Source of the DNA: Scenedesmus sp. ARA3
Lineage: Eukaryota > Chlorophyta > Chlorophyceae > Sphaeropleales > Scenedesmaceae
Reading direction: 5' to 3'
Assembly: GCA_004335835.1 (NCBI GenBank)
Contig: RWJK01000419.1
Coordinates: 1 to 64,000, forward strand
Length of the DNA: 64,000 bases
A program made the position numbers and the translations under genes. Under the pieces are notes generated by a model, which saw only the letters and a program-made list of their open reading frames with translations, did no database searches and was not told where the DNA came from. This document shows, in pieces, positions 1 to 64,000 of this stretch (its first letter is position 1; each line of letters starts with the position of its first letter).

Positions 1-3000
1 CTGCTTGGACTTGTTGAGCGCTGCTTGGCGGTCCTGCAGCATCTTCTGCAGGCGCTCGCGCTCCTTTTGGTGCTTTGCTATTCGCTCCTCCTCCTCGCGG
101 CGCAGCCGGGCTCTGCATGAAGGTGCACCAAATAATGCGGCAAAACAAAGTGTGGCAGCAGGAGCGGCAGCGTGGAAAACAGTGAGGCACTGAAAGCATT
201 GCAGGTGACAGTCCGGCAGCAGCAGAACCAAAACTGAATGTAGGAAGAGAGCAGCAGCACAGAAGGCAATAAGGCATTGAGACAGGTGTTGCTGATAGCC
301 TAGCAGCAGCAAGAGGGTGCGACATGCATGTGTGCTCATTTAGCTGGCATAGACTGCACAGCACCCACAATTGATACAGCACGCATGTTGCCGAAACAGC
401 CAAACATAGAGCAATGAACAGACAGCACATGCACATCGCCAGGCATGCGAGCAGACACGGATAACGGCACGCACGTACCGCAACACATCCGCATGCCCAA
501 CCGCATAAGCTTACAAAGGCACCGCAAAACCAGGAAATTGCAACACCTCCAACGCAATGCATACAAGCATAAGGCAGCCGTTGCAGCACCATTCTAAAAC
601 CTCGCACCAGGCCTCACATGCTTGCAAGACGGTGTTCATTGTGGACTCTGTGGTTGACCAAAGAGTACCCAGTGAACACAGCAGGCAAGCATGCAGCATC
701 AAGTGGAAAATGCCGCACAGATCATCCCCTGCTGCGCCTATGTATCTTGTCATAATCCAGGGACATCCAGAGAGATGTATTCACCCAGTTGTGGCTCATA
801 CCGTCTAAGGTGGTGGCTGGATAGATAAAACAAGCGTCGTCAATTAGGTGTATAACGCCTCCCCTGCAGCACCTCTGCTTCTCCTCAGGATCTAGCAACA
901 ACCACAGCACACATTCAACATGTTGTCATGACAACTGAGTAACAAATCAGCACATTGCTGTCGCTCCCGCACCTCTCTATTTCCTCAGGCTCAAGTGGCA
1001 GCCATTGCACTTGCTCAACACGTTGCGTGCCAACTACAGCAACACTTCAGCACACATGCAACAAGATTTAATAACAACTACATAACACCCAAACAAAACG
1101 ACTAATCTCTGTGTCGCACCTCTCTATCTCCTCAGGGTCCAATGACACAACCTGCACCAGTGCGGGCTTTCTCGGCTGCTGCTGCTGCTGCTCCCCGCCA
1201 GCCTCACCCTCTACTGCTGCTGCTGCTGCATCTGGCTCTACCATGCCATCCTGCATGTACTGCTCATAATCCGCGGCACTCATGTAAGCAGCAGGATCAA
1301 ACTGCTGCCCAGAGGCCCATGGATCGCTGCCACCATATGCATAGTAAGGATCAGCATAAGGATCTGCCATAGGGTAGCCATATGCATTGTACTGCCCATC
1401 CAGAGCAGCTTCTGCTGCTGCCGCTGCAGCAGCTGCTGCTGCTTCCTCTTCAAGCCCCGGTGGCGGCGGCTCTTCAGGCGGCGGCTCCGCTGCTGCTGCT
1501 GCTGCTGTTGCTGCTGATGTGTCCCAGCCGCCGGCGCTGCTGCCGTATGCTGCTGCTGCAGCAGCAGGATCCTGGTAGGGAGCCGCATGCTGCCAGCCGT
1601 AGTATGGATCGTAGTAGCTGCCGTAATGCCCAGACCCGTACCCAGCTGCTGCTGCATACGGGTCCATCCCCGGCTGCTGCTCTCCTCCTGCTGCTGCTGC
1701 TGCTGCTGCTGGATCTGGCAAGCCTAGCTCCACTTCATCACCAGGCGGAGGCGCATCCTGATCATACCACGGAGCCTCAACCTTTGCTGCTGCTGCTGCT
1801 GCTGCTGCGTCTGGTGGGGGTGGCGGGTAGGCTGCTGCATCAGAGGGGCCCTCATGGGGTCCCCAGCTGCCGGGAGGCCCAACACGCCTGTCATGCTGCG
1901 GGTGTGGTGGGCCGTGCATGTCCCGGTGATGCGGCGGAGGGCCTGCAAGTGAATGCAGTGGATGGCAACAGGTTCGCCGTGCACACAGCAGCACAGATGT
2001 GTGAGGGGAGGCATGGCGCCCAGAGATCAAACACTGGCCAGTGCAACAAAATGCGTCAAGTACACAGAGCGTCTCTGGCTTCACGCGCGCTCAGGCTGGC
2101 CTCAAGTGCGCTTCACGAGGCCACTGGCGCGCCCACCAACCCCAAGCAACCACGCTTCAAAAGCCAAAAATCAAGTCATCCAGCCGTCAAGCACGCAGCA
2201 CCAGCTGATGGCTGCAGCCCCAATGAAACATTGAAGATGCCATGGCGCACCAGGCGCCTACCATGCAGCCCAAAGTGTGGCCCAATCTGCCCTCCTCAAT
2301 CGCTCCAGGAGCCCACCCGTGCTCTCGGCACGCCACCAAGCAAACAACCAACCAAGCAAACACCAGCCCATGCTCCATGCCCTCCTCGATCGCCCCAGGA
2401 GGCCACCGGCGCGCCCACCACGCCACCAAGCAACCAAAATCTCACCACACAAGCACAAATCACTGCAGACTCAACCGTGTGGCCCAAAGTCGGGCCCAAT
2501 CTGCCCTCCTAGGTCGCCCCAGGAGGACTGCGGGGCGCCCACCACGCCCACAAGCAACCAACCAACCAAGCAAGCAAAGCACACGCCAATGCCCCAGCCA
2601 ACCAAGTAAGTACGAAAGCAAGCACCACAAAACTGCAGACTCACCGTGTGGGCCAAAGTCAGGCCCGATCTGCCCTCCTCGGTCGCCCCAGGATGCCTGC
2701 GGCGCACCCACCACGCCGCCAAGCAAGTAACCAACCAAGAGCGCAAGCAACAAGAAGAAAGCAGACTCACCGTGTGGCCCAAAGTCAGGCCCGATCTGCC
2801 CTCCTCGGTCGCCCCAGGATGCCTGCGGGGCGCCCACCACGCCGCCGCTGCGGCCGCGGTCATTGGGCCCGTGCCTGCCCTTGATGCGTACCGCCAGGCG
2901 CTTGTTGCCTGCGCAGCAAAAGGATAGACGGCAGACCAGAAAGACGCAAGATTGGATGGCGCGATTGTGCATTAGGGCAGGGCTGAGGGCGGAAGGTTGA

Positions 3001-3292
3001 ACCCTACACACACAGCATGCAGACTACATGTGTACCGACACACCCAGCTCAGTAGGCCAAAGTGAAGCAGTCTGAGTGCACTACGCCTGAACTGTGTTGC
3101 TGATGGCATCATGAAGACATGTGTGCTGTACATAAGCACACAGCACCCAGCCCCACCTATGAGGTAGTTGTCCAGCCGCTGCAGTGCCGCATCTGCCCCC
3201 TCCTGCGTCGCCATACGCACAAACCCGAAGCCCTTGGACTCGTGGGTGTGCCTGTCGCGCACAATCTGGCACTCCAGCACCTCGCCACAGCT

Positions 3293-3351
<59 letters not shown>

Positions 3352-4219
3352 GGCGGGGATTATGCATGTTGTGGTGCCTTGTGCGCATATGTTGGTGCGG
3401 CAGCAGCAGCTGCAGCAGTAGGAGCAACGCATGCAGTCCCGAGCAGCAGCTATGCGCTGCACAGTTGCACACCCATTTGTAGAAGTATCAACCACAGGCA
3501 CCGCATGACAATACACACCGAGTCACAATGAACAGCTGCAAACAGCATCCACGTGATCCATGCGTGCGGAACAATCCTCCGTCATTTGCTTTGTCTGCAT
3601 TACAAGGTACAACCTGGCAGATGCACAACCACAGACGAAACAGCATTGCTGCGATCAACACTCGACACACCTGCGGAACAGTCCCTCCAGCATCTGGTCC
3701 GTCACATGCGCAGCGATGTAGCCCACATACAGGTGGCACGGGTCACTGCCTGGCGGCCCCCTGTCCCGGCCCCCGTCCCTGTCCCGCTCATGCAGGCCCA
3801 GCCCGGGCCGTCCCCGTCCCGGGCCGCCTCTGTCCCGGTCAGCACCTGGGGGCCCTGCCCCTGGTGGGTGACCCTCAGGGCCCGGCTGCTCACCGCCAAG
3901 CTCCTGCAGGCCGCCAACAAAGCAGTTTCCACAGTCATCACAACAGCATGTACACGGGCCAAGGCATGATCCAGAATTTTGTTCTGGCGCATGTTCTGTA
4001 CTCGTTACATAATCTGTCTTGAACTGCTGCGCACAGCCACAGCTGAAGCTGTTGCTTGCACCGACCCACCATCATCACCAACCCACCTGCATGAAGCTCT
4101 TGTATTCATCATCAAAGCGGGGCATCTCCTCCCCGTGCACGCGCGCCACATCACGCCTGTACTGCTCCTCAACGGCCTCTCGCATGTGCTCAGGCAGGCG
4201 GTACACCTCCTTGTCGGCT

Positions 4220-4262
<43 letters not shown>

Positions 4263-7200
4263 GCAGCAGCAGCAACAGGAAACAGTGAGCACATGTACTG
4301 CTCCTCGACAGCTGCACGCATGTGGTCAGGCAGGTAGTGCACCCCTCGTCATCTGCGGCAGCGGAAGCAGCCAAGGCGACACCAGCACAAAGCGACAGCC
4401 AAAGCACACCCCGGGAAGCAGGGCTGAGTCAGCCGCCGGCATCACACGAATGTAGGGGCGTACTGTCACACACCCGCAGCGTGTGCAGCTTTCTTGCCAA
4501 CTGCAATCTTACCGTTGACACCTGTATCGCCACGGAGCACCTCACTCTGCTGCTTGATGAGCCAAAGCCCGAACAGCTGCTGCACTACATGCCGGCCCTG
4601 TGCAGTGTGTGTGTGTGCTACAAGGCGAACGCGCATGCCGCAAATGCGCACGTACCCTCTGCTGCGCGCTGCGCCTCGATGATCTCGTGGTCCCGCAGCG
4701 TGCCGTTGATAGCTGCCAGCTCGCCACAAGCAGCAAGCAGCATGCATTTGATGCAGAAGCACCTGCGCTATGTGCACTAGGCAGCCGCGGCGCAAACCAC
4801 CACCTACAAACTGCTCACCCTCTGCTGCGCGCTGCGCCTCAATGATCTCATGGTCCCGCAGCGTGCCGTTGATTGCAGCCAGTTCCCGCAGCTGCAGCTG
4901 CTTGTGCTCGTTGGTGGCATCATCCATCGGGGTGAGCAGCTTGGCCACCATGGCAGCACCCTGTCAAGTGGAAAAGCAGCAAAACAGCCATCAGGTGCAA
5001 TCCTTGCTTCATGGCCAGCAGGGGCAGCAGCTCAATCAGCACAATGCTCGTCCGTATTGCGCATGTAGCACTTGCTTCTGGGTTGTTTGTGGGTAAAGTA
5101 CATTTATCTTTGCTGTGTGGCTTCATCCATCGGCGTGAGCAGCTTGGCCGCCAAAGCAGCACCATGTGGATGGCAGCAGCCGGGGCAGAGGAGGAGACAC
5201 AAAAACACAAAGCCCACCTTGTCCACGTCAGCGTCGTTGTCACCAGTGACCAGCACGTGCAGCTCCTCAGTGTCACTCGGGTCAGGCTTGCTGCGTAACC
5301 ACCCTAACAGCGCCGCAACCTTTGATTGTCACAGACTCACCTCGTCCACGCTGGCGTCGTCACGCCCAGTGGCAAGCAAGTGCAGCTCCTTGGTGCCGAT
5401 CCCAGTTCAGCACCCTGCACATACCCAAAACAACTGCTGCTACGCTGGTCAAACAATCACCGTGTCCACGTCAGCGTCGTTGTCACCAGTGACCAGCACA
5501 TGCAGCTCCTTGGTGTCACTGGTGCAAAAACGACATTCGCAACGACCACATGACCTTCACATGAGCCCACCTTGTCCACGTCAGCGTCGTTGTCACCAGT
5601 GACCAGCACGTGCAGCTCCTCGGTGTCACTCGGGTCGGGCTTGCCGTCCTTGCGGCTGCGGCCCTCCTTGACACTGCCACGGCCCCTGATGGCAATCTTG
5701 CAGTTGCTCTCCTGCAAGGCGGCAGCAAAGGAAACAGCCACAGGAGAAGAAGGCAGAAGATCGGTATGGTGTAATTCACCGTGTGTTGCTGAAGGTATGA
5801 TCCAGGACATTGCAGAGCCCACCACCCAGCCGCCGCACAGCACACAGCCACTACAGCGCACCAAACAGCACGCCACCCAGCATGCCACCCATCGCACCCA
5901 CTCCCTGCGCTTCTGCCTGTTATCGCGCGGATTGGCGACATGCCTGATCAAGTTGCAGCCCCACAAAACACAGCCCACCAAAGCCCACCACCCAGCCCAC
6001 CGGAGCAACCACGCAGCACGCCACCCGCTCCATGCGCTTCTGCGTGTTGCCACGCAGGCTGATGATGAGCCCTAGGAAGTTACAGCCCCTCATCACACAT
6101 CCCACCACAGCACACCACGCAGCCCACCACTCTGCCACGATTACAGAACGCCACAGAACGCCACCCAGCCCACCACCCAGCCGCCTTACCCGCTCCATGC
6201 GCTTCTGCGTGTTGCCGCGCGGGCCGATGATCAGCCCAATGAAAGTTGCAACCCCAAACCGCACAGCCCGTCACGCAGCACGCCACCAGCCCACCACTCA
6301 GCCGCCTGACTGTGCACTTACCCGCTCCATGCGCTTCTGCGTGTTGCCACGGGGGCCGATGATGAGCCCGATGAAGTTGTACCCCGGGTACTCGTCAATG
6401 GGGATGCGCAGCTTGCGATACTTCTTCTCGGGGCGGTAGTCAGCGGGCGGCTTGTAGCTGGGGTTGGCCTTGATCATCTCCGTGATCAGCTCCTGCAGGC
6501 GTGCAGCAACAATGGAAAACACATGAGTTTGATTTTGTTAGGGAGGGCGCATGCAGCTGGGGGTTGGCCTTGATCGTCTTCGTGATCAGCTCCTGCAGGG
6601 ACCAGGCACAGCAATCTGCATAAAACCTATTGTTCTACTATGTGATATCGATGTGTCAATGTTGGGTCTTGTAGCTGGGGTTGGCCTTGATCATCTCCGT
6701 GATCAGCTCCTGCAAGGTGCACACGTAGTGCAAGGTAAACAGTGTCTATGTTTCAAAGGGGTTTATGCAGCTGGTGTTGGCCTTGATCATCTCTGTGATC
6801 AGCTCCTGCATGATATCAGGTGCAACAATGTATAAATATTGATCCATGAACTGATGTCATTGTGGCTATGTATGATGGGCTGTTGTAGCTGGGGTTGGCC
6901 TTGATCATCTCTGTGCAATGTGAGAAAGGAGATGGTTACGTGGGGTGGCACGTAGGTAATGAATAGGCAGGGTTGACATTGGCCCGTTCCATGTTTAGCT
7001 CCGGCACAGAGAGCAGCCGTCATGACACAGCTTCGCATATGCAGCAGATCTCAGACATACTCACATTTCTGTGCCGGACCAGCTTGTCGCGAGCGCGCTG
7101 CTCGCGCGTGTTGATGCGCGCGCCGCTCTCATTGTAGACCGGCTCAGGGCTGGGTGAGCGGCGCTCCTCTGGGGTGTCGTCCACCAGCTTGCCCTGCGCC

Positions 7201-7695
7201 ACCAGCTGCAGCTTCTGGTTGACCTGCAGTTACAAACACAGTCAGTTCTGTTACAAGCAATGACAAGATGACATTGAAAGATGTGTTGTCCACCAACTTG
7301 CCCTGCGCCACCAGCAGTGATGCTTCTGCTTGTGGTTTGTCAGAGTATTGGTTGCAGGCTGGGAAAAACTGCTGCAGCTGGATGTCCTGTTGTTGCTGCT
7401 GCCATGCAGACTCCTGCTGGTGCTGCCGCCGTTGCTGATGCTGCTGCTACCCATTCCTGTGGCAGGTGTGCTGTCCGACGCCCAGGCATCCGTTTGCTGC
7501 TGCTGCTGCTGCTGCCGCACTGTTGCTGTTGTGATGATCCTGCCCACACTGTTCGGCTGCCGTTGCATCTGCTGCTGCTACCGTACCAAAGTTCCCTCAC
7601 ATCGCCCAGCTGCCTGATAACTGCTGCCGCTACAACTGCCACTGCTGCTGCCGGCAATGCCAGTGTCACTGCTGTTGCCGAGGTTGCTGTTGCTT

Positions 7696-7739
<44 letters not shown>

Positions 7740-9544: not shown

Positions 9545-12500
9545 ATGGAAGCCCAACAACTCACAAAGTAGGGTTTATTGGTGTTTCTGATGATGTTCAA
9601 CACCTAAATGGAGCACAATGGTGCAGCAGCAGAATGAGCCGCATGTGCCATGACAGACGACCGCACCAACCACTTCACCATAGCCCCTCACACCTCTGGC
9701 TCCCATCATCGCCTTGCAGGAACAACTCTGCTGCCAAGAAGAAGCAAAAGGGCATCAAAACCGGCGGCAAAGCAAGCAGCAAGGCGCTGTGGGGCTCTGC
9801 ACAGGGCTGGAAGCAGCTGGATGCTGCTGACGAGCTGCTGCTGGGTGCTGAGGAGGGCGGCTTTGCAGGACTGGAAGTGCTGGAGGATGTGAGCCTGCTG
9901 GATGCAGGTGGGTGGCGCACAATTTATTTTCTGGTGAAGTGTTGTTGGTGAACTACGATTGGATGTAGCAGTTGGGTGCTGAGGAGGGCGGCTTTGCAGG
10001 ACTGGAGGTGCTGGAGGATGCGAGCTTGCTGGACGCAGGTGGGTGATGTATTGTTTGTTCTAGTTATGATGTAGGTCTTGATTTTCAAAAGACAGAGCAG
10101 TTGGGGGCTGAAAAAGGCGGCTTTGCAGGACTGGAGGTGCTGGAGGACGTGAGCCTGCTGGACGCAGGTGGGTGGCGTACAATTTTATTTTGCAGGGAAC
10201 TGGTGCAGTCCGCAGCAGCCGTGTGCTGAGCCTAGATGTGTTGCAGCATCTGTACAGCTGGTGCAGGGTGCAGAGTGCACACACTGCAGCTGCTGCACAC
10301 ACCTTGCCAAGATGGCTACGCACTGCTGCTGCCATCACCCTTGGGAGTACTGGCTACAAGCTGTCTTGGGAGATGCATACGCTGCATGTGCAGAGCTGCT
10401 GCCTACTGCTGTCTGCATCTCATGTTGCTGCTGCCGCTGCTGCTGCTTGGGCTTTCAGACCTCCTTGCCTCCCTCAATGGTCAGGCCAAGCAATCCTTTG
10501 ACACAGATGCAGCAGCAGCAGGCAGCAAACCTGGCAAGAAGTCAAAGAAACAACAGCAGCAGCAGCAAAAGAAGGGAGCGCCTGGCTCTGGCAGCAAACG
10601 CAAGCGTGCAGATGCAGCCACAGATGCTGCTGGTGATGCTGCTGATGCTGACGTGGCAGCGCTCAAAGCTCGCCTGAAGAAGCTGGAAGCTGAGAATAAG
10701 GCCCTGAAGAAGCAGAAGAAGCAGCCAGCAGCAGCAGCAGGCAGCACTGCAGAAGATGCCGGCGCTGCAGCAGCAGCGCCAGCAGCAGCAGCAGCAGCAG
10801 ATGGTGAGCCTGCAAGGAAGAGCCGAAAGGAGCTTCGTGCAGAGAAGAAAAAGCAGTACAAGCTAGAGAGGCAGCAGCGGCTTCGGGAGCAGCGCGAGCA
10901 GGCGAAAGCCGCGAAGAAGCAGCAGCGCGAGCAGCAGCAGCAGCCAGGCGTGCAGCAGGGCGCTGCTGCTGCTGCTGCTGCTGAGGTAGATATGAGTGGC
11001 TGGATGCGGTTCAGCTTGCACCCCAAGCTTGAAGCTGCGCTTGCAGCTCAAGGCTTTGCAAGCCCTACACCCATCCAGGACGCTGTGCTGCTGCCGGCGA
11101 TCAGAGATAGACGGGATGTGATTGGTGCTGCACAGACGGGTTCAGGAAAGACGCTGGCTTTTGGTCTGCCTATCCTGCAAGTGCTGCTGCAGGAGCAGGA
11201 GCTGCAGCAGCTGCAGCAGGGGCACGATGCGGCAGCAGTGAATACAGCAGGAGATGCAGCAGATGGCGATGATGAGGAGGAGGGTGGCCAGCAGCAGCAG
11301 CAGCAGCAGCAAAGTAGCCCCCTGCGCGCGTTGATCCTAGCACCCACAAGAGAGCTGGCGCTTCAGGTGAGGGCTAGGGAGCAGCAGTGCTGCTGCTTGA
11401 GGAGATCAGCATTGGTAGCAAGCAGCAGCACCGGGAATGCATCGCGCTGTGCTGGCGCTGTGTATCAGCGAGGTTTGGGAGTTTGAAAATTTAGGTGCTG
11501 CAGCTGCCGCCACCTTGCTGCCGTGCTGCTAACTCTGTCTGCAACCTTGATCTGTTTCAACCTTTACACAGGTGCCTGAGCACTTGCAGGCGCTAGGCAA
11601 GCACGTAGGCATCGGTGTTGCCGCATTGGTTGGAGGCATCGTGCCCGTGCAGCAGGAGCGGCTGCTTCACAGCTCAGGTTCTGCACAGCCCTGACTCAAC
11701 AACCGCTGCTGCTGCCTCTCCCTCGCTGCAAATGCGCAGGCTGCGGAGCACCTGCAGGCCCTAGGCAAGCACGTAGGCATCCGTATTGCTGCTACTGTCC
11801 ACAACACCGACGCCATTTCCACTTTCATACACACAGGCTGCGGAGCACCTGCAGGCGCTAGGCAAGCACGTAGGCATCCGTGTTGCTGCCCTGGTGGGCG
11901 GCATTGCCCCTGTGAAGTAGGAGCGCATGCTGCGCAGCTCAAAATTCGCACACCCCTGACACTCAACAACTGCTGCTGCTGCTGCCTTTCCCTCGCTGCA
12001 AATGCGCAGGCTGCGGAGCACCTGCCGGCCCTAGGCAAGCACGTAGGCATCCGTATTGCTGCCCTGGTTGGCGACATCGTCCCAGTGAAGAGCGCCTGCT
12101 GCATACTTTCTAATGCTGCTTCTGCCTCCCCCTCGCTGCACATGCGCAGGTCGCCAAACGCCTGCAGGCCCTAGGCAAGCACGTAGGCGTCCGCGCGACT
12201 GCTGCTGTTCCCAGCACTAACGCCTTTTTCCTTTTAAACACGCAGGTCGCGGAGCACCTGCAAGCGCTGGGCAAGCACAAAGGCATCTGCTGCCCTGGTG
12301 GGCGGCATTGCCCCAGTAAAGCAAGCACAGCTGCTGCGCAACCCAGGTTCTGCACACCCCTGACACTCAACAATTGCTGCTGCTGGCTCCCCTTCGCTGC
12401 AAATGCGCAGGTTGCGGAGCACCTACAAGCCCTGGGCAAGCACGTAGGCATTTGTGTTGCTGTCCTGGTGGGCGGCATCGCCCCTGTGAAGCAGGAGTGC

Positions 12501-15500
12501 TTGCTGCACAGCTCAGGTTCTGCACACCCCTGACTCAACAACGGCTGCTGCTGCCTCCCCTTTGCTTCAATTGCGCAGGTGGCCGAGCACTTGCAAGCCC
12601 TAGGCAAGCACGTAGGGATTCGTGTTGCTGCTCTAGTGGGCGGCATTGCTCCCGTGAAGCAGGAGCGTCTGCTGCGCAGCTGCCCGCCCGTGGTTGTGGC
12701 AACGCCTGGGCGGCTGTGGGACCTGATGCGCCACGGGCACAAGCACGTGTCGGAGCTGGATCAGCTGAGCTTCTTCGTGCTGGATGAGGCAGACAGGATG
12801 GTGCAGCAGGTGCGTGTTCTGCTGGTCTGCCGCTTGCACAGACATCCATAAACACGGATTGCCCAGCTACAGGTTTTGTTGTTGCTGCGTGCATAGACTG
12901 TTGTGGCCGCCCGTGGTTGTGGCCACGCCTGGACGGCTGTGGGACCTGATGCGGCACGGGCACAAGCACGTGTCGGAGCTGGATCAGCTGAGCTTCTTCG
13001 TGCTGGATGAAGCTGACAGAATGGTGCAGCAGGCGGGTGTCTTGTCTGTTTTTGTGCACTGTACACGTCAGCACTAAAATGTGTTCAAAGAACACAAGCA
13101 CGTGCCTGAGCTGGACCAGCTGAGCCTCTTTGTGCTGGATGAGGCAGACAGGATGGTACAGCAGGTGCGTATCTTGTTTGTTGTTATGCCACTGCACCGC
13201 CATCTCATTGAACAGGTTGTTAGGGCACAAGCAGTTGCAGAAGCTGGACCAGCTGAGCATGTTGTTGGGTGTTGTGTTACGGCGCCATCAGCACATCAAA
13301 CAGTAGGTTTATCGGGCACAGCCATGTCTAGTTGCTGGACCAGCTGAGCTGCTTTGTGCTGGATGAGGCAGACAGGATGGTGCAGCAGGTGGGTGCATTG
13401 CAACTGTTGAGTGGTACCTTGTGCTGCAGTCTCAATTTCAACTTGCAGGATCAGCAGCTGATCCTTGCTCGACATTTTTTCAGCCTTGTTCTTTCCTGTA
13501 TTTCCAGGCACAGTGCAACAATTGGCAACCCGAACTGTGTTTTGCTGGGTGCAGGGCCACTACGCTGAGCTGTCCAGCATCCTGGAGCTGCTGCCAACGC
13601 CCGACAGGGCCTCAGCCAAGGCGGCAGCAGCAGCAGCAGAGGTGGAGGAGCAGCGGCGGCTGGACGAGGCAGCAGCGCAGCACAAGCAGCAGGGTGAGGA
13701 AGAGTCCGACGGTGAGGGTAAAGGTGAAGATAAGGATGAGGCAGATGGTGAAGATGAGGAGGGAGAAGAAGAGGAAGCAGACGGAGAGCAGCAGCAAGAA
13801 GAGGATGATGATCAAGAGCAGCAGCAGCAGCAGCAGAGGCCAAACAAGAAGTACCACGGCAGGGGGCAGCACCAGCCGCGGCAAAAGCAGCAGAAGCGGC
13901 CGCGCGGGCAGCACCACCTGCTGCAGACGCTTGTGTTCTCTGCTACCCTGGCGCTGCCTGCGGCGCTGCACAAGCGGCTGCGGCGCGGCGGCGGTGGCTC
14001 AAGCGGCGCGGCGTCACTGGAGAACCTCATGGACAGGTGCTATTTAAGGTGTTATGTATGTGTATTTTTGCTCGGTCATAGTGTTCTTATTTAGGTGGCG
14101 TATTTAGGTGGCAAACTTTCCAGCTGCAGCTGATCTGTTGCATCCAGGGTGGCTGCCTCATCTCTCATCTCCTTCACACATACAGCGCCATATTGTGTGT
14201 GCCGCAGGCTGTCCTTCCGTGAGCGCCCCGCCATCATTGACCTCAGCCCCTCCAGCCAGCTGGCAGCGCGTGTGACTGAGGGCGTGCTGCACACGCTGGA
14301 AGAGGAGCGGGATGCTACGCTGTACTACTTGCTGGCGCGGCACCCTGGGCGTGCACTGGTGAGTGCAGGTTCAGCACACTTGATCCGATCCCGAACGAAT
14401 GTGATTGAACGGGTGTCACAGTATGATGCGCGCGGTATGATGCGCGTGACGCCACACTATACCACCTGCTGGCGCAGCACATCGGGCCGCGCGCTGGTCA
14501 GCAAGTCAATGAGCGGGCCAGAGTGTTGCCGCCTGCCAGAACCATCATGATGTTGTGTCAATCTGCGTGTACTGGTGAGGCTCGCGGCTTGTCCTGTGGC
14601 TTGCCATACTGCAGACAGCCGCCGTGCAGTGCGGCACACTACCGCCGTGTCTCGGCTTCGCATATTGCTGCAACCGCTTTACTTGTGCTGCTGCCACACT
14701 GCAGGTGTTTGTGAATGCTGTCTCCGCGGTGCGCCGCGTGGCTGCACTGCTGAAGCTGCTGGGGCTGCCGGCAGTGGCGCTGCACGCGCAGCAGCAGCAG
14801 CGGCAGCGCCTCAAGGCGCTGGACAGGTTCAAGAGCCACGAGCATGGCGTGCTGGTGGCCACAGATGTGGCGGCACGCGGTCTGGACATCCAGAACGTGC
14901 AGGTGCGGTTTCAAACCTGCTGCTGACAAAACAAAACGTTTGCTTTTCACAGTCGCTGTGTACTTCCACATTGCTGGTGACACAGCTGCACTTGTCTGGG
15001 CTGTTGCTCACAATTGTGCGCGCCACAGCACACTGTACAAGTATCAATTTGTGATCAGCAGGAGCTAGCCCATGCCTGCATGGCGATCTCATGTTGCTCG
15101 CTGCTGCTGCTGCTGCTGCTGCTGCTGTGTCTGGCATCCAGATCGTGGTGCACTACCAGCTGCCTGCCTCGGCAGACACCTACATCCACAGGAGCGGCCG
15201 CACAGCACGCACAGGCGGCGTGGATGGAGTGGTGCTGGTGAGTACGCAGCAGCAGCAGCATTGCCACGGCAACATGCTCCTGCAGTTGTGCTGCGGTATG
15301 GCAGGGCAGCCTTGCCAGAACTACAGAAGAGACTGCACATGTGGGGTCGATCGGGGCTCATTGATGCTTGCGTGTTTGCGCACTGCTGCTGCCCTGTGCT
15401 GCAACTGCTGCTGTCGCAGTCCATGGTGACGCCGAGTGACGCCTCCCGCTGGGCTGCGCTGCGGCGTGCGCTGGAGGGCCAGGCGGCTCCTCCCAGCTTC

Positions 15501-16741: not shown

Positions 16742-16999
16742 GGGCAGGATTAGTTCAGCACTGTTTGGTGGGAACTGGCGCAGGGATGATATGTTACAGT
16801 TCAGCACCGTGACGCTGGGTTCTAACGTGTCTGGTGTTGTTGCGGTGCACTGCGGTGCTACCCAGTGGGTGATGCACTGATGCACATTAGCAATGTAGCG
16901 TTGTGGGGTCTCTAGGTGGCTCGAGTGTCACTGGTTGTTGTTGAGTCTGTTGATTCTGTTGAGTAGGCCTGGCCACACTTTGTGTTGCATGCCTTGCAA

Positions 17000-17162
17000 G
17001 TGCCGCCAGCAAGCAGAAGCAGCACCCCACGGCAGCTTTGCAGGAAGCAGCAAGACTTGCCGCAAGGCATGGTGGTGGTGCGGCCTGGTGCTGCTGGCGG
17101 CGCTTTTGGCAGGGATGCGCAGGGCGCATCTGCGCTGGATGTGCTCAACATGAGCAGATAAG
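17000..17162 (+). pseudogene. Copy of the DDX24 C-terminal end including stop
   Basis: Repeats the end of the last exon: a degraded [15 protein letters not shown] block, then [20 protein letters not shown] and ALDVLNMSR with a stop. It lies about 420 bp beyond the functional stop at 16741. It is probably 3' UTR or intergenic. Confidence 0.85.
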
Positions 17163-40173: not shown

Positions 40174-40222
<49 letters not shown>

Positions 40223-45790: not shown

Positions 45791-45840
<50 letters not shown>

Positions 45841-46878: not shown

Positions 46879-46884
46879 GCACTG

Positions 46885-48169: not shown

Positions 48170-48560
48170 ATCAGTCCCAGCAGGGCAGCAGCTGCAGCCT
48201 GCACAGCACAGCATCCAACACAGCCTGCTGCAGCTGAGGCACCTTCAGTGCTGCAGCCAGCCGCCCCGGCAGGCACTGCGCCAGCCCTGCGCTGCCAACC
48301 ATCATGCCAAACAGACGCCCAGCTCTATGCAACCGCCACATCCAGAGCCTGTCAACACCTTGCGTGCCACACATGTATGCACAAATGGATACATAGACGA
48401 GTCCTGCTGACAGAGAGCTGGGTGAGTTATTCCCAGCAGGGCAGCAGCTGCAGCCTGCACAGTACCGCATCCAACACAGCCTGCTGCAGCTGGGGCACCT
48501 TCAACGCCTTCGCTAGCCGCCCCGGCAGGCACTGCGCCAGCCTTGCGCAAACCATCATGC
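48170..48560 (-). repeat. Two copies of the CPSF-A-like C-terminal end with stop
   Basis: Minus-strand blocks at about 48460-48550 and 48175-48290 repeat ARLAQCLPGRLAKALKVPQL then QQAVLDAVLCRLQLLPCW. They lie beyond the functional stop at 48683. Both copies include more downstream sequence similar to the functional 3' flank, so the unit (about 250 bp) spans coding end plus 3' flank. Confidence 0.9.
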
Positions 48561-48682
48561 CCAACCATATGCCCAGCTCTGTGCAGCCGCCACATTCAGA
48601 ACCTATCAACACCTTGTGTGCCATACACGTACTGCACAAATGGATACATAGACGAGTCCTGCTGACAGAAAGCCAGGTTGCA

Positions 48683-51283: not shown

Positions 51284-51315
<32 letters not shown>

Positions 51316-53438: not shown

Positions 53439-53485
<47 letters not shown>

Positions 53486-55734: not shown

Positions 55735-55767
<33 letters not shown>

Positions 55768-57858
55768 CAGCATCAGCATCAGCATCAGCAGCAGCACACA
55801 TCAGTCCAGATTGATGCACAGTAGTCTGACGTCGTTTTTGGTGCAGACAAGCTTGCACATATGCAAGCATGCATGTGCGGTCTGGGTGTAGAAGCAGCAA
55901 CTGGCTGCTACGTGTCAGCCAGTTGCTGCTGCTGCTGCAGCAGCTGCAGCAGCCCTTGCCCTACCTGTCGGGCTGCTGGGCACTGCGCTCAGGTGCAGCG
56001 GCCGGCCTAACACGCCCTCAGGCCCCCGGTGGGCCAGTGTCACCAGCCCTAGCCTGGTCAGGGACTGGCAGTCGGCCTGCCAGCGCAACAGCAGCAGCTC
56101 GCTGCTCGACTCGCCAGGCCTGCGGCAGCGGTACAGTGTGTGGGAAAGTGAGCGAGTGTGACAAGGGCTAGGCTGGTCAGGGAGAGGCAGTTAGCCTGCC
56201 AGCGCAGCAGCAGCAGCTCGCTGCTAGACTCGCCAGGCCTGCAGGGCACAGGAGGCAGAAGGCAGGTGGGTTATTGGTGGGGCACAGCATGCACCAGAGG
56301 AGTGCGGTTACAGCTGGTGCAGGATGAACAGCAAAGTCAGCCCAGCATGCATCAGATGTGCTGAACCCAGCGCTACACCCGCCATAGCAGCCTTACAAAA
56401 CCACCAAGCAGCAAGTGTGCTACACGCATTTGCGCAAGGCATGTGCATCGGCCGTGTTGGAGGTGCATTGTGCAGAGGCTGCACACCTGTAAGAAATGGC
56501 AGCCAAGTGCTGCACATCGCTGCTGCTGCTGCTGCTGCTGCTGCAGGAACAGAAGGCCAGGTCAACAATGCTGCCTAGCTCCAGCTGCTGCTCCCTTGCT
56601 CGGTCAACCGCCACTGCTCCTGCAACTGCTGCTGCTGCAGGCGCGTACACAGCGGGCTCTGAAAGCGCCACACCCTCTGCTGTTGAGGCTACAGCAAGGC
56701 ACGCGACGCGCCCGCGTGCTGCTGCAAGCGCCAAGCTCCTGCCATCTGATGAGATGGCTAGCCTGCATCCCAGGTGGTCCTTGTCCAGGTGATTTCCTGC
56801 AAGCAGTTTGGCATGCGCGGGCAGCAGGATCGGCATGATAAGGAGCGCTTTGACGGCGGCAAAGTTGGGTGTTATGTGCCTGGTGCCAGTGTGGTGACTC
56901 TGCATGTAGGCACAGCAGTACCTACCAAGATGCAGGTGCAGCGAGCAGGGGAAGGCAGTCTTCTCTGCGCATTGGGGTGCATTAGTGCAGTGCGCGCTGC
57001 TGTTACAGAGTCACCACGTCATTGCCGTCAAATGCTTAGAGTATTTACGGACATGAACACCAAGCAATATGACACAGCTGGCAGCGCTCACCACTAGCAA
57101 GCATCAGCTCAGAGACCACCATGAACCTGCAGCACAGCAAGCACAGCTCCTCCGTCACAAACCACAAACACCATGTCCAATGTTGAAGAGATTGATGATG
57201 AAAAGTGCTGCAGCACGAACAGCTGTGTGCATGCGGTGACCTGCCACTGACGGCAGCTCCCACGTCCAATGAGATGTCCTGTTAAGCTGCAGCTGGCACA
57301 CTGTAAAAGTGACTCATACTGTCCAAGATGGTGCCAGGGCTCACGTGTGGCTACCCTTTCTCAAAGTGAACAGTCAGCAACTATGCTGGCGCAGCTTCAG
57401 GAAAATCACATTGCGCAATTGTTGCTGTTCAGTCAAAGTAAAGACAAGTTGTCCTGCAAGCCGCACCTGTTGACCATGCTGTTGTAGCGTAGCACCGCCA
57501 AGCTGCCATTGGCCAGCAGAGCCACCAGCTGATCCAAAGGATACTGTAGGCATGCATGCAGCAGGGCGAGCAGGCAGGCAGTCAGGCAGGCGGGCAGGCA
57601 GGCACAGTGTGCATTCAACAAAAAGGTGTCCTGCAAGACGCAACAGCGTCATATTCGACGTTCCTGCGGGCATGCTTATGTGTGTGACAACAATCATTCC
57701 TGCTCAGCTGGCGTCTGTACACTGTGCCGCTGCCATTGTGCTGTTGCGTGGCGCCCAGAAGGATTCACATGGGACTGCAACATGTTTCTGTGATGCATGA
57801 ATACAAATGCACGCGACAGACTTCACTCACGTCTTTGCTGGCAGCATCAGCGTTGGTT

Positions 57859-57895
<37 letters not shown>

Positions 57896-58633: not shown

Positions 58634-61600
58634 ATGGCAGAGGCACTGGCAGCAGAGCCGGTGGCAAACGGGAACACGCTCCACGAGGAGCCAGCAGCAG
58701 TGCAGCCCGAGGCAGAGGTAGCAGAGCCCACGGAGCCTGAGCAGACATCGAAGGGACTGTACATTCTTCGCATTCCCCGGCCCACGTTTGATGACTCTGC
58801 GGTGAAGAAGTTGGAGGGCGAGCTGAGCGCGGTGTTCACCAAGCTGAAGGCCATCAACGGCAAGGCGCAGATCAAGAGGGTGAGCTTGATTTGTGCCATG
58901 TTGGCGCAACACATTGCCAGCTGAGTCATGCTGCTGCTGTGCAACCGCTTTTGTCGTTGGGGTGTGTGCTGGGTCCCGGTCAGCAGCAGCTGCTGCACGC
59001 CAGATCCATGCCTTCAAGCCTTTTTACACCCCTTGTACGTGTACCTGCTGCCTAGTTCATCCCTCTTCAACGTCTTTGCTGCCTGCATGCCATCCCATCC
59101 TGGCAAACATGCTGCACCCCTGTGACTGTGCTGCTGTTGCTGCGGTCAACGCCCTGCTACTGTTGTCCTGCAGGGGGAGGCCAACGAGCTGCGCAAGCAG
59201 CTTGGCGTGGCGCGCTCGCTGCGCAACGGCTCCAGCCCCGAGTTTGACGAGAAGATGACGCGGCTCAAGCAGCTGCGCGAGATGCGCAAGGCTATCCTGG
59301 ACAAGGTGGGTGGGGGCAGCAGCTGGGGCTGTAGTTAGAACTGTAGTTGTGTATTGTTCGTTTCTCATGCACCTGGGGCTGCTTTTGAGTTTTACTCCGG
59401 GAGCATAACCCCTAGGTGTCTGTCCTGCATGGTGCATTGAAATATCGCACGACACCTCATTTCACCAGGTATCATTTCACCAGGTATGCCCTCATTTCAC
59501 AGCAAGCCTCTCATTGCAGACTTATGTGCCTCGAGGGAAGCTTTTCAAAGAGTGCGAAGCACATTTTGCATGGCAAGGTCATGTGCAGAGCAGCAGGCAA
59601 CGCTCATCGCACTAGCGAGGCATACCAATCACCCTCCTGCCACCACCTGAACACCACTGTGCGGTTTCCTGCAAACGTGTCCTGCGAGCCAGTCCTGCAA
59701 ACCATTGCCTTGCCGAAGCATGTGTCCTGCACACCCTCAGAAGAGCAACAGGATGAAGCTCAGGCGCCAGAGCCTGGAGTGCCGCATTGTGGGAGAGCTG
59801 GACCTGCACTGCTGCTGTTTCAACCCATCTGGTAACCAAAGTACCCTCTGTCTTGCGAATATCAGACATCATGCAGGTGCAAGAGATGAAGAGCGCGTGT
59901 CAGGGCTTGGAATGCTGCACTGAGGAGGAGCAGGAACTGCGTTGATGCTGCTTCACGCCCTCCGCTGAACTGCAAACCCTCTGTCCTGCAACCCCTTCCT
60001 GCAACCCCCCGCAGGTGCAAGAGATGAAGAGCGGGCGCCAGGGCCTGGAGTGCCGCACCGAGGAGGAGCTGGACCTGCGCATCGCTGAGATGGAGCACTC
60101 CATCCAGCACGACGACCTGCCGCTCAACACGGAGAAGCAGTACGTGCGCAACATCGCGAAGCTGCGCAGCCAGCGCGAGCAGATCCGCGCGGTGCAGGGC
60201 CAGCAGGAGAGCCTGGGTGCCATGGAGGCGGAGGCGAAGAAGATCAAGGCCGTGATCGACGAGGTGGGGGCAATGTTGTGGCTTGGTTGATTGGGAAGAT
60301 GCATGTGATGCTTGTGTACAATGATTTTGATGGTGGTGATGGAGGGCGGAGGCGAAGAAGATTAAGGCCGTGATTGCTGAGGCGGGTTTAGTTGCCTGAC
60401 GTGAGCTCAGCGTGCCATTGTGTTCATTGACCAGCATACGTAGCAGAGATCAGGTGACATTCGCGATAGCACGTGTGGCGTGGCGCTGTGAGTACTTGCA
60501 TTTTTGGCATGCGCCGTGTTGCACCAAATGAATTGGTGCTGCTTATGCAGCAGGTGAACATGCTACGCAATTCATAACAGAACATTGTGTTTTCTTGCAG
60601 AAACGGCGGCAGAAACGGCCACAACCCTGCTGCTGCTGCTGTTCTTTCGTATGTCATGTTTTCTGCTTTGCTTTTCCTGCGCAGGTGGACAGCGAGATGA
60701 ACATCCTGCGTGGCGAGCGCGACCAGGCCAAGGACATCATCGACGACCTGCAGAAGAAGCTGGCCGTGGTGACGGCTGTGCTCAACGACTACGACCTGGA
60801 GCGCCAGGTGCGCACATGTTATGTACACGTGTCTTCTGTGGGTCATATCCGCAATTTACATCCTGGAGCGCGTGGGTTACTGGATGTGCGCAGCAGCCGC
60901 GTGTTGTGTTGTTTGACGCGGCTGGGCTGGGGGATGCTAACGGGCAGCCTGGCCAAGCACAGCTGTTGAGCTAGTTGATGGGCAGTCACGTCGCGTCTGC
61001 CCTGAGCAGCCGCGCCTAAGCGACGTGGAGCAGCCAGGCGCTAAATCTCATGCAGCACGAATCATCAATCCTTGTTGCACTGTGCTCCATTACAACCTGC
61101 AAGACCTGGAGTCCACCAAGCGCGACACCCAGCAGCAGCTTAAGCTGCAGCTTGCGCTGCGCGACGCAGTATGATGTACTGTTACGCAACGCACCCAACT
61201 CATTGCTGTGTTGCTGTGTTTCTTTGCAGGACCTGGAGTCCACCAAGCGCGACATCCAGGAGCAGCTCAAGTCGCTGCGCGAGGAGATCGACGGCCACAT
61301 GTTTGAGTGGCGCGCCAACCGCAAGCTGTCGCTGCAGCTGCGCGACCTGGTGGCGGAGGGCAAGGCTGAGGAGGCGTCCAGCATCGCAGAGCAGCAGGTG
61401 GAGAACTACCTGGGCAAGCTGCTGACGGACATGTGCTTCAGGTGCGTCTATTTTATTCTGTAGGCTTTTGAGGGGTGGTTTTTTTGTCTGGGGTATCTTG
61501 GAGCCACAGCAGCAGGTGGAGAACTACCTGGGCAAGCTGCTGACAGACATGGGCTTCAGGTGCGCTGCAAGGCTCTGTACGAGGCTTCATAGGAGGGTTT

Positions 61601-64000
61601 GTGTGTGTGATAGGAGGGTTTGTGTGTGTGTGTGTGGGGGGGTGATGCACAGCAGCAGGTGGAGAGCTGCATGGGCAAGCTGCTGACAGGTACAGGCTTC
61701 AGGTGCAACGAAGGGGGTCTGCGGAGGGGTGTTGTATTCTTGCGTTGTTTCAAGTTCTGTTGAACTGTGTTTTGACTGCGTTGACTGTCTGTGTGCTTGT
61801 GTCTGCTGTTGCCTCTGCTTGTTTTGTATGCGCTGGTACATCATGCTGCTTACACTGCCTGGTCATATGTACTGCTGCTGACATACATATGTGCTGCTGG
61901 CTTTCTTCTCGTTGTCCCTCTGCTCGTGCGAGTGCATCAAGCTGTGTCGAGCGCCGCTACCTCTGCTTGTGCTGCTGCTGACGTGCATGTTCGTGTCCGT
62001 TGCTCCGTTTTGTCCCTTCTGCCGCACCTGCAGGCGCGAGTACATCAAGCTGTGGTCGGAGCAGCGCCGCTACCTGGTCAGCGAGCTGCTGCCAGACAGC
62101 GGCGCCCCAGAGCCCAAGCCAGCAGCAGCAGCAGGCAAGGCCGGCGACAAGGGCAAGGGCAAGCCAGCAGCACCCCTGGTGCCGCAGGGCGCCATGAAGG
62201 CGCAGGCCATCATTGCGGCTGCGCTGGCTGAGGCTGATGCTGCTGTGGCGGCAAAGCGGCTGGCGGAGCCGCAGGCGCCGGTGCAGGAGGAGCACAGCGA
62301 GCATGAGGAGGAGGCGGAGGAGGAGGCAGCGGCACCCGCAGCGCCTGCAGGTGAGTTTGGAAGCTTGGTGATATGTTGTTGATGCGCTTTTGATTTTGGA
62401 TGGTGGCGCACAGCGAGCATGAGGAGGAGGCAGAGGAGGAGGCAGCGGCTCCTGCAGCGCCTGCAGTTTGGTTAAAGCGTGATGTGTATTGTCGTGTAGT
62501 TATTGTTTCTGAGTCGATGATGGCGCACAGCGAGCATGAGGAGGAGGCAGCGGACCCTGCAGCGCCCGCAGGTGGGTTGAAAGCGTGGTGTGTATTGTCA
62601 TGTAGTTAAGTTGTTCTACGTCGATGATGGCACGCAGCTAGCCGGGGGCGGTGGAGGAGGCCACGGCCCCTGCAGCGCCTGCAGATGGGTTTTATTCAGG
62701 ATTTGGGGTGTGTTTTGTTGGTCTATTGGTTTAAACCAAACCCCTTGCGCAGCAGGGGCGGGAATAGGTAGGCGCCGCAGTTCACTGCTTATCTGCACTG
62801 CGCATCATGGCGCAACTGATACGCTGGTGGCCAGCAGCGCCAAGGTGCCGTGCGTTATGACATACAGTGCGCTTTCGCACCGTGCTGACTCATCTGCTGT
62901 GCCTGCTTCTCTGCATGCAGTGCGCATCGTGCCTGGCATCATTGATGAGCTGGTCGCCAGCAGCGCCAAGGCGGCGCGCATTATGTCACAACATGCGTCT
63001 TCGCACTGTGCTGACTCATCTGCTGTGCCTGCTTTGCTCCATGCAGTGCGCATCGTGCCCGGCATCACTGACGAGCTGGTGGCCAGCAGCGCCAAGGCGG
63101 CGTGCATCATGCATACCGTGCGTCTTTGCACTGTGCTGACTCGTCTGCTGTGCCTGCTTTGCTCCATGCAGTGCGCATCGTGCCTGGCATCACTGACGAG
63201 CTGGTCGCCAGCAGCGCCAAGGCGGCGCGCGCGCACGCCAAGCCCGCAGCAGACAAGTACAAGGCCGTGGCTGAGCTGCCGGAGGTGCCCGACTACGAGT
63301 ACATCATGCCACCCCCTAAGGAGGTGTCAGCAGAGACAATGAGCAAGGAGGAGCTCAAGGTGCGCTGCTGTGTGGCTGCTCCCTTTCTGAAATGCGTGGG
63401 TGTGCACCGTTTTGTGCAGTACTGCATCGGTTGGGGGCTGACGTGTGCCAGGAATTGAAGTCGTGAACAATCAAGGAGCGCCACACTTGATTGTATGTCA
63501 TACCAGACATGTTGCCTGGCAGTGTTGGGTGTGCAGAGAAGCCATGCACGCCACCAGCAGCAGAAGGCCCAGATGCCCTTCTGAGATCAGGACACACTGC
63601 TCGATACTCCCGGCAACCACTGCATGTGATGTACTCTTCCTCCCACTTTCTGCTGTCGCCACTGCTGCTGCTGCTGCAGGCGCGCGTGCGCGAGGAGCAG
63701 CGCCAGAAGGCCGCAGAGGCTGAGCTGCGCAAGAAGCGCCGCCAGGAGCAGCAGGTCAAGAAGGCAGCAGCAGCCAAGCAGAAGGCCGCAGAGCAGGCCG
63801 CCGCAGCAGCGTCAGCACCCCCAGTGGTTGCCGCCGGCCGTGTGGCTGCTGCACCTGTTGCGGATGAGATTGAGGGCGCATCTGGCACAGATGGCGAGAA
63901 CGAGGCAGCTGAGGATGTGGCCGCAGTGCAGCAGCAGCAGCAGGTGAAGCAGCGCAAGGCCGACAACAAGCACCTGCCGGCGAAGGCAAAGCAGCAGCTG
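58634..64000 (+). CDS. BFR1 / proton-pump-interactor-like coiled-coil protein (right-truncated)
   Basis: Eight exons: 58634-58879, 59174-59305, 60015-60263, 60685-60807, 61230-61441, 62034-62350, 63172-63359, 63680-64000 (open). They give 596 whole codons. The ATG at 58634 follows an in-frame TTG that is not a start. Order: acidic N-tail, a GLYILRIPRPTFDD strand, and long charged coiled coils (MTRLKQLREMRKAIL). The diagnostic block is EEELDLRIAEMEHSIQHDDL then EKQYVRNIAKLRSQ. Another coil follows (ESTKRDIQEQLKSLREEIDG), then a K/A-rich acidic linker, DYEYIMPPPKE and a KKRRQEQQ coil. The combination matches the fungal Bfr1 and plant PPI families (ER/mRNP- or H+-ATPase-associated). Which role applies here is not decided by sequence. 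Ladders flank exons 3, 5, 6 and 7. Confidence 0.82.
59735..59940 (+). repeat. Two copies of BFR1-like exon 3 5' end
   Basis: Blocks at about 59745-59815 and 59877-59940 copy VQEMKSGRQGLECRTEEELD. The second follows CAG and then runs into an in-frame TGA. Both lie upstream of exon 3 (60015). Confidence 0.85.
60340..60385 (+). repeat. Copy of BFR1-like exon 3 3' end
   Basis: Encodes EAEAKKIKAVIAE then GCGGGT, a copy of EAEAKKIKAVIDE with its donor changed from GT to GC. Lies downstream of exon 3. Confidence 0.8.
61085..61170 (+). repeat. Copy of BFR1-like exon 5 5' end
   Basis: After CTGCAA, encodes DLESTKRDTQQQLKLQLALRD, a copy of the exon 5 start, upstream of the exon (61230). Confidence 0.85.
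61500..61705 (+). repeat. Two copies of BFR1-like exon 5 3' end
   Basis: At about 61509-61560 and 61652-61702, encoding QQVENYLGKLLTDMGFR and QQVESCMGKLLTGTGFR. Each ends TTCAG|GTGC like the functional end at 61441. Confidence 0.92.
61920..61965 (+). repeat. Copy of BFR1-like exon 6 5' end
   Basis: Diverged copy (CECIKLCRAPLP in place of REYIKLWSEQRR) about 100 bp before exon 6. Confidence 0.65.
62400..62690 (+). repeat. Three copies of BFR1-like exon 6 3' end
   Basis: Blocks ending at about 62466, 62571 and 62685 repeat AHSEHEEEAEEEAAAPAAPA followed by GCAG. The second keeps GTGGGT, the others are GT-less or changed. All lie downstream of exon 6 (62350). Confidence 0.9.
62800..63165 (+). 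repeat. Copies of BFR1-like exon 7 5' end
   Basis: A partial copy at about 62817-62860 and two full copies after CATGCAG at about 62922 and 63047 encode VRIVPGITDELVASSAKAA. The functional exon starts at 63172. Unit spacing is 125 bp, and the intron part (CTGTGCTGACTCATCTGCTG) repeats too. Confidence 0.92.

What the first reader, a model, noticed from the sequence alone, without database searches (positions are those of the whole stretch)
1..64000. Splice-junction ladders: exons flanked by tandem copies of their own ends
In SF1, DDX24, UGP3, the TauD-like gene, the CPSF-A-like gene and the BFR1-like gene I count more than 50 partial exon copies inside introns or 3' flanks. The arrangement has no exception I could find. 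Copies of exon 5' ends (acceptor plus exon start) sit upstream of the exon, and copies of exon 3' ends (exon end plus donor) sit downstream. Copies diverge with distance. Repeated tandem duplication across boundaries would produce this, since duplications wholly inside exons would be purged. Tandem duplication is a known route to intron gain, but dense ladders on both sides of many neighbouring genes are, to my knowledge, not a described genome feature. They may drive intron growth and supply decoy or alternative splice sites.
Basis: partly seen in the sequence, partly recalled or inferred. Interest (0 to 1): 0.87.

Follow-up and report, generated by a model that had tools for sequence, protein, structure and literature searches.

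The report
Exon-edge copies laddered inside algal introns
In a green alga, many exons are flanked by decaying partial copies of their own ends, made by small tandem duplications; oddly, the exon-derived parts of the copies often look fresh beside intron parts that no longer match, which suggests that exons may keep overwriting their copies.

Summary
The ladders are real and widespread. The window is from Tetradesmus obliquus or a very close strain (UGP3 piece listed at 100% identity). Of 30 curated exon ends, 29 carry 59 copies on the intron or flank side. In the window plus 19 other stretches, 102 of 431 predicted exon ends carry 163 copies, against 3 in a chance control.

The geometry is what any tandem duplication across an exon edge must give if the exon stays intact. 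Copies diverge only weakly with distance, and exceptions exist. Copies decay neutrally (copy-specific changes 53/55/57 by codon position), so selected decoys are not supported.

The surprise: exon-derived parts stay similar beside intron parts that no longer align. Exon and intron similarity are uncorrelated in the large set (rho 0.04) and weakly correlated in the curated set (0.31). At 93% or more exon identity, 38% keep an alignable flank, against 68-98% under neutral simulation.

Best account: tandem duplication in units of about 120 bp, well supported, plus exon-anchored gene conversion, inferred; a mosaic test found no direct trace.

The parts
2260..2771 (-). SF1-like: exon with donor end at 2771 and four downstream copies of its 3' end (2621-2714, 2449-2545, 2357-2421, 2260-2331)
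4217..4371 (-). SF1-like: acceptor 4217 with one upstream copy (4294-4371)
4641..4819 (-). SF1-like: donor 4819 with one copy (4641-4722)
4960..5180 (-). SF1-like: acceptor 4960 with one copy (5108-5180)
5206..5571 (-). SF1-like: donor 5571 with three copies; the farthest (5211-5291) is 97.5% identical, the middle one 77.6%
5896..6322 (-). SF1-like: donor 6322 with three copies
6492..6915 (-). SF1-like KH-region exon: acceptor 6492 with four upstream copies, one 100% identical over the 36 bases compared
   Evidence: Pfam SF1-HH and KH
7223..7332 (-). SF1-like: acceptor 7223 with one copy
9907..10191 (+). DDX24-like: donor 9907 with two copies in a tandem array of period about 129 that still shows intron part
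11553..12579 (+). DDX24-like: acceptor 12579 with seven upstream copies; intron part at 0.75-0.83 in four of seven (tandem array)
12809..13395 (+). DDX24-like: donor 12809 with three clear downstream copies (12963-13048, 13095-13193, 13323-13395) and one weak; exon part 92-97% over the 36 bases compared, intron part 48-59%
14358..14501 (+). DDX24-like: donor 14358 with one copy
15557..15661 (+). DDX24-like: donor 15557 with one short copy
16741..17160 (+). DDX24-like: end of last exon with stop codon (16741) and one copy in the 3' flank; similarity drops beyond the stop (0.92 against 0.49)
29895..30007 (+). UGP3: acceptor 30007 with one copy (two weaker hits not counted)
30848..30966 (+). UGP3: downstream copy of the inside of exon 30508-30777 without its end (exception to the rule)
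   Evidence: no end copy found at 30777
31014..31137 (+). UGP3: acceptor 31137 with one copy
31895..32423 (+). UGP3: acceptor 32423 with four upstream copies
32917..33068 (+). UGP3: donor 32917 with one copy
37761..37964 (+).
39132..39318 (+). 'TauD-like' gene: acceptor 39318 with one copy
39489..39626 (+). 'TauD-like' gene: donor 39489 with one copy
48153..48683 (-).
56119..56251 (-). 'CPSF-A-like' gene: acceptor 56119 with one copy
59725..60015 (+).
60263..60386 (+). 'BFR1-like' gene: donor 60263 with one copy
61073..61230 (+). 'BFR1-like' gene: acceptor 61230 with one copy
61441..61706 (+). 'BFR1-like' gene: donor 61441 with two copies
62350..62692 (+). 'BFR1-like' gene: donor 62350 with three copies (period 105 array)
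62777..63172 (+). 'BFR1-like' gene: acceptor 63172 with three copies; two keep the intron part at 86-97% over the 36 bases compared

Best explanation
Step 1 (shown by sequence): small tandem duplications, mostly in units of 110-140 bp, arise across this genome. One that spans an exon edge and leaves the exon intact is tolerated, and leaves a partial exon copy in the intron or 3' flank. Repeats of the event build a ladder and lengthen the intron. Step 2 (shown): the copies mutate neutrally at the protein level and so are not kept as coding exons. Step 3 (inferred): the functional exon keeps overwriting the exon-derived part of its copies by short-tract gene conversion or unequal exchange. Selection holds the exon and its splice site (about +1 to +6) constant, so that stretch stays recombinable, while the intron parts of exon and copy drift until they no longer pair. 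The result is exon-sized islands of similarity that end near the splice site or stop codon, with age largely uncoupled from the intron part beside them.
For: Step 1: direct, local repeats with 110-140 bp spacing; the same spacing range in 35 of 136 one-exon and 21 of 80 non-exon repeat pairs; full-unit arrays; donors at geometry-correct repeat edges 40 times against 10 at wrong edges among 103 repeats. Step 2: copy-specific changes 53/55/57 over codon positions, 4 new stops against 4.2 expected, 34 of 41 indels not multiples of three; 129 of 156 in the larger set. Step 3: exon and intron similarity uncorrelated in the large set, rho 0.04, n = 155; alignable intron flank in 61 of 147 copies against 121.7 expected; fraction with a long alignable flank flat at 0.43/0.33/0.39/0.38 over rising exon identity, against 0.50/0.76/0.91/0.98 and, with the heaviest indels, 0.21/0.25/0.39/0.68 in neutral simulations; in the curated set 14 of 18 copies with at least 93% exon identity have intron parts at the unrelated level; a step at the splice site for window donors, repeated less sharply for both site types in the other stretches. 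Where the exon's amino acid differs from the Scenedesmus sp. NREL 46B-D3 protein, copies match the exon 40, the outgroup 3 and neither 6 of 49 comparisons (DDX24 and UGP3, one exon site counted once per copy).
Against: In the curated set exon and intron similarity are weakly correlated (rho 0.31, p = 0.018, n = 59), as drift would give. No mosaic of converted and unconverted patches: mismatch clustering seen with 5-10 nt edge trim vanishes with 15-nt trim. Longer islands are not more similar (rho -0.19), where conversion might predict the reverse, although detection bias pulls the same way. Conversion over tracts of about 60 bp at about 10% divergence is demanding. Residual intron homology below threshold is weak (0.113 against 0.100, p = 0.0037). 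Window acceptors show a smaller drop than donors. Exon ends outside UGP3 and DDX24 rest on my own gene finder and reading; 4 of 225 confident exons may themselves be copies.
Confidence: 0.46

Rival explanations
1. Plain neutral model: random tandem duplications, drift and frequent large indels, no conversion. Exon-edge copies are merely the ones that stay visible because the exon side changes slowly.
For: Some copies fit: exon and intron parts about equally diverged (4 of 7 at DDX24 12579, 2 of 3 at BFR1-like 63172, 1 of 2 at CPSF-A-like 48683). Weak positive correlation in the curated set (rho 0.31). Non-exon repeats exist (up to 80 of 230 pairs). The heaviest large-indel regime brings the overall alignable fraction close to that observed (0.39 against 0.37).
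Against: All four regimes simulated predict that flank alignability rises with exon identity (0.68 to 0.98 at 93% or more, against 0.38 of 34 observed). The heaviest gives more breaks inside exon parts than seen (0.0049 against 0.0021 per base); the regime nearest to that figure (0.0014) predicts 0.65 alignable. No correlation in the large set.
Confidence: 0.26
2. Exon-only copying: some repair or template-switch process inserts copies of exon ends that never carried much intron, so the spacer was always unrelated.
For: Many high-identity copies have flanks at the unrelated level (19 of 32 copies with exon identity of at least 93%).
Against: Arrays with full intron parts exist. Regular 110-140 bp spacing. 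Copies almost always run through the exon edge: homology ends before +3 in 10 of 163 and at +3 or beyond in 153. Slight residual intron homology.
Confidence: 0.13
3. The copies are functional decoy or alternative splice sites kept by selection.
For: Splice dinucleotides are still present in many copies: 37 of 41 donors and 33 of 37 acceptors in the other stretches, 15 of 21 and 9 of 16 in the window (weak and edge-lost copies left out); 21 of 28 and 19 of 28 in the curated set. In the other stretches donor GT identity (0.95, 0.95) is a little above exon identity.
Against: In the window it is a little below (0.86, 0.81). Neutral codon pattern, frameshifts, stops. No clear 3-base phasing of distances (donors 32/22/23, acceptors 29/24/25 for remainder 0/1/2; no test run). 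The UGP3 protein with copies skipped is listed at 100% identity to an annotated T. obliquus protein, though whether that assembly carries the copies was not seen.
Confidence: 0.07
4. Assembly artefact.
For: None found; raw reads were not available.
Against: Copies of one exon end differ from each other by about 19% in the exon part on average. Local direct repeats occur in 18 of 20 other stretches, all on different contigs. An SF1-like paralogue in the same assembly shows none in the 3.1 kb held.
Confidence: 0.02

Closest known systems
[quoted passage not shown] reviewed in PMC3443670, passages read; potato RdRp case PMC4974935, passages read)
   Same: Tandem duplication inside genes; in potato the duplicated segment also crosses an intron-exon boundary.
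   Different: Here no new intron is evident in UGP3: copies lie in skipped introns. Many ladders across the genome rather than single events, with exon and intron ages largely uncoupled.
Minisatellite-like tandem repeats in introns
   Same: Head-to-tail units of about 100-130 bp, several found by Tandem Repeats Finder.
   Different: In excess at exon edges, and in many ladders only the exon-derived part of the unit is still recognisable.
Tandem exon duplication and mutually exclusive exons (recalled, no call)
   Same: Copies of exon sequence inside an intron.
   Different: Partial, frame not kept, neutral decay.
Introns limiting gene conversion between duplicates (hypothesis in PMC9220161, abstract and section list read)
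   Same: Intron divergence blocks recombination between duplicates.
   Different: That paper concerns whole duplicated genes; here the partner is a fragment inside the gene's own intron.
Introner elements (PMC9860276, search listing only)
   Same: Growth or gain of introns in diverse eukaryotes.
   Different: Introners are copied to many genes; here copies stay beside their own exon.

Membership tests
Tandem genomic duplication | Direct, adjacent, head-to-tail copies | tested here: met
   72 direct against 0 inverted within 1.5 kb in the window, 160 against 5 in the sample; arrays found by TRF
Tandem genomic duplication | Copies homologous over the whole unit when young | tested here: inconclusive
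   True for some arrays. All 11 repeats of at least 95% identity cover under 0.7 of their offset, but some of those pairs lie two or more units apart, which lowers the ratio
Intron gain by tandem duplication (AGGT model) | A new intron with the coding sequence unchanged | tested here: not met
   In UGP3 the copies lie in introns that are skipped, and the protein equals the annotated one; intron positions in relatives were not compared
Introner elements | One sequence family in introns of many genes | tested here: not met
   Only 7 non-simple matches between different stretches among the window and 20 stretches; exon-end queries find 3 hits in unrelated flanks of 431. Not searched genome-wide
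Mutually exclusive or alternative exons | Protein-level constraint and reading frame kept in the copies | tested here: not met
   53/55/57 by codon position, 34 of 41 indels out of frame
Mutually exclusive or alternative exons | Use in mRNA | not testable with these tools
   No RNA data; the annotated UGP3 protein equals the model with copies skipped
Gene conversion / concerted evolution | Copies in one genome more alike than their age allows | tested here: met
   taking the intron part as clock for the same event; the curated set is weaker (rho 0.31)
Gene conversion / concerted evolution | Mosaic tracts inside copies | tested here: not met
   Clustering not significant after 15-nt trim (58 of 500 and 288 of 500 permutations reach it)
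Gene conversion / concerted evolution | Copies within a strain more alike than the same copies between strains or species | not testable with these tools
   No DNA of a second strain held; at protein level copies match their own exon over the outgroup 40 to 3

The most novel reading that the evidence does not exclude
Exon-anchored concerted evolution: across an algal genome, functional exons continually overwrite the decaying fragments of themselves in their own introns through very short conversion tracts. The introns therefore grow by about 120-bp steps and carry fresh-looking pseudo-exons with splice sites whose flanks are old.
Probability: 0.37. Interest if true: 0.78.

Novelty: new variant of a known kind. 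Interest (0 to 1): 0.6.

Why it matters
If about a quarter of exon ends carry such copies (102 of 431 here), tandem duplication is a major source of intron length in this alga: 68 introns with ladders have a median of 571 bp against 313 for 117 without, though copies need room, so part of this is circular. It might help explain long introns in green algae; PMC8226300 (passages read) reports medians of 198-343 bp and no short-intron peak in Chlamydomonas relatives. The uncoupling of exon and intron ages offers a test bed for very short gene conversion tracts in a nuclear genome. In practice, ladders may mislead gene prediction: one T. obliquus DDX24 annotation (P0122) starts inside the laddered exon or its first copy, which match it equally.

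Tried and rejected
Functional copies: rejected on codon-position, stop and indel tests. An early hint of constraint (third-position excess in exon-copy differences) is read as change in the exon lineage; copy-specific changes show none. cDNA-mediated conversion: unlikely, because in the other stretches splice sites in copies are as well kept as exon parts; in the window they are less well kept. Mosaic evidence for conversion: apparent at 5-10 nt trim, lost at 15 nt, so not claimed. Single-large-indel survivor model: 21 of 32 high-identity copies lack an exact match of 15 nt or more in their flanks, 11 have one, so this is weakened, not excluded. Acceptor motif at repeat edges: uninformative, 62 against 62. 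SF1-like paralogue as a shared-ladder control: it has no ladders in the stretch held. Gene names: two single exons of the TauD-like gene and one of the BFR1-like gene gave no Pfam hit; the CPSF-A-like piece was not scanned. My quick TauD and BFR1 splices had stops and were not used.

Rows dropped before counts: simple-repeat matches (81 to 78); self-overlaps and copies scoring under 25 (87 to 59); the 462-base stretch in gene-finder work; copies whose edge could not be mapped or whose flanks were too short, then those outside the exon-score bins (163 to 155 to 147); weak or edge-lost copies in the profiles.

Full report
Where it is from. A 790-residue piece of UGP3, spliced from ten window exons with all ladder copies skipped, is listed at 100% identity over 100% of its length to Tetradesmus obliquus OEZ85_004516 (P0001; by eye the two differ in the length of one serine run). 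Whether that other assembly carries the copies was not seen. The assembly holding the window has 87.3 Mb in 1567 contigs. The joined exons of UGP3 and DDX24 are open throughout when copies are skipped. SF1 is supported by Pfam SF1-HH and KH. DDX24 is supported by homologues named DDX24/MAK5.

What is there. Self-comparison of the window gives 71 direct matches within 1 kb and 1 inverted among 78. At 29 of 30 exon ends examined in the six genes I find 59 copies. Two of these ends are stop codons of last exons (DDX24 16741, CPSF-A-like 48683), so a splice site is not required. In 20 other stretches of the genome (185 kb) there are 160 direct and 5 inverted repeats within 1.5 kb; the direct ones cover 12.8% of bases and occur in 18 of 20 stretches. 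The window is typical, at 14.8%.

Control for exon excess. I trained a small hidden-Markov gene finder on curated exons and ran it on the window and 19 stretches. It finds many curated exon ends but also calls some copies as exons; 4 of 225 confident exons may be copies of a longer one. Of 230 local direct repeat pairs, 136 join one exon copy to a non-exon copy, 80 touch no confident exon and 14 have both in exons. Random placement gives 59.6 one-exon pairs (sd 5.8, maximum 74 in 200). The 80 is an upper bound, since two of the 24 'noncoding' repeat loci are known exon-end ladders in the window. Of 431 exon ends, 102 have copies: 163 on the intron side, 29 on the opposite side. Mid-exon queries give 14 copies from 96 queries. 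The chance control gives 3, so the opposite-side and mid-exon copies are not chance either.

Geometry. A tandem duplication spanning an exon start must leave the partial copy upstream, and one spanning an exon end must leave it downstream, if the gene is to keep one intact exon. Spacing is diagnostic: 80 of 163 steps are 110-140 bp and none is below 80. Non-exon repeat pairs also favour this range (21 of 80, against 35 of 136 for one-exon pairs), so it points to the mutational process rather than to splicing, with the caveat that some 'non-exon' pairs are unrecognised exon ends.

Neutrality. In curated ladders with two or more copies (934 sites), changes private to one copy fall 53/55/57 on codon positions 1/2/3; 53 are synonymous (44.9 expected, p = 0.16) and 4 are stops (4.2 expected). 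Changes private to the exon are 4/3/8. Of 41 indels in all curated copies, 34 are out of frame; in the larger set 129 of 156. Distances from the real splice site modulo 3 are 32/22/23 for donors and 29/24/25 for acceptors (no test run). The copies behave as pseudo-exons.

The anomaly. Over 36-base windows, exon-derived parts have median identity 0.89 to their exon and intron-derived parts 0.55, with unrelated introns at 0.49. Between copies, where neither is functional, the figures are 0.82 and 0.51. Position by position, window donors drop from about 0.9 to baseline by +8; window acceptors drop less, to about 0.45. The other 19 stretches repeat the step, less sharply: exon side about 0.88 for donors and 0.87 for acceptors, intron about 0.5 near the site and 0.33 farther out, baseline 0.24 to 0.30. 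Exon and intron similarity are uncorrelated over 155 copies (rho 0.04, p = 0.62), but weakly correlated over the 59 curated copies (rho 0.31, p = 0.018). Even there, only 4 of 18 copies with at least 93% exon identity have intron parts above the unrelated level, against 6 of 41 others. Of 147 copies in the binned range, 61 have an alignable intron flank, against 121.7 under neutral simulation. Because large indels plus ascertainment could mimic this, I simulated four indel regimes. All predict that flank alignability rises with exon identity, reaching 0.68 to 0.98 at 93% or more. The observed values are 0.43, 0.33, 0.39 and 0.38 (n = 14, 51, 64, 34).

Dating. In 49 codon comparisons in DDX24 and UGP3 where the exon's amino acid differs from the Scenedesmus sp. 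NREL 46B-D3 protein, copies match the exon in 40, the outgroup in 3 and neither in 6; one exon site is counted once per copy. The exon parts thus appear to share ancestry with this species' exon after that split, whatever the state of the flanks.

Interpretation. The simplest mechanism that yields old flanks, young neutral exon parts and an edge at the limit of constraint is conversion by the functional exon. I could not show it directly. Mosaic clustering fails after stricter trimming, longer islands are not more similar, the curated set shows some correlation, and no second strain's DNA was available. I therefore give the two-step account 0.46, and the duplication step alone about 0.9.

Literature. 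Potato RdRp shows a single boundary-crossing tandem duplication (PMC4974935, passages). A review's table gives 188 unambiguous events of intron gain by tandem duplication (PMC3443670, passages). The passages seen in these two do not describe ladders. The listings (17 to 20 papers shown of up to 4,422) held no paper that I recognised as describing exon-edge ladders; the library lacks most subscription journals and says it holds no bioRxiv preprints.

Noticed in passing
23606-24962 against 15377-16737: A decayed copy of the 3' part of the DDX24-like gene lies about 8.2 kb downstream; by eye it has extra repeats of one exon end of its own.
   Followed up: partly
C1213 of the same genome, locus L007: An SF1-like paralogue with exons about 74-80% identical shows no ladders in the 3.1 kb held, and its KH exon appears to be interrupted by an intron that the window gene lacks.
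   Followed up: partly
12579-12809: The T. obliquus OEZ86_008600 annotation of DDX24 (P0122) begins inside this laddered exon or its first copy and lacks the N-terminal part that the Scenedesmus sp. protein P0121 has; ladders may break gene prediction.
   Followed up: partly
whole window, for example 3288-3348, 7698-7739, 40174-40221: Very frequent (CAG)n/(CTG)n runs; UGP3 differs by one serine from the public T. obliquus protein in such a tract (by eye).
   Followed up: no
894-1147 (minus strand gene): Probably a further exon-end ladder in the SF1-like gene, not among my 30 ends.
   Followed up: no
L026 7767-8391: A 130-bp direct repeat array of several copies at about 91% identity with no confident predicted exon, so the process may not be confined to exon edges.
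   Followed up: no
17451-17508, with L023 6089-6146, L021 203-264, L016 1786-1823: A short dispersed repeat shared between stretches, perhaps part of a mobile element.
   Followed up: no
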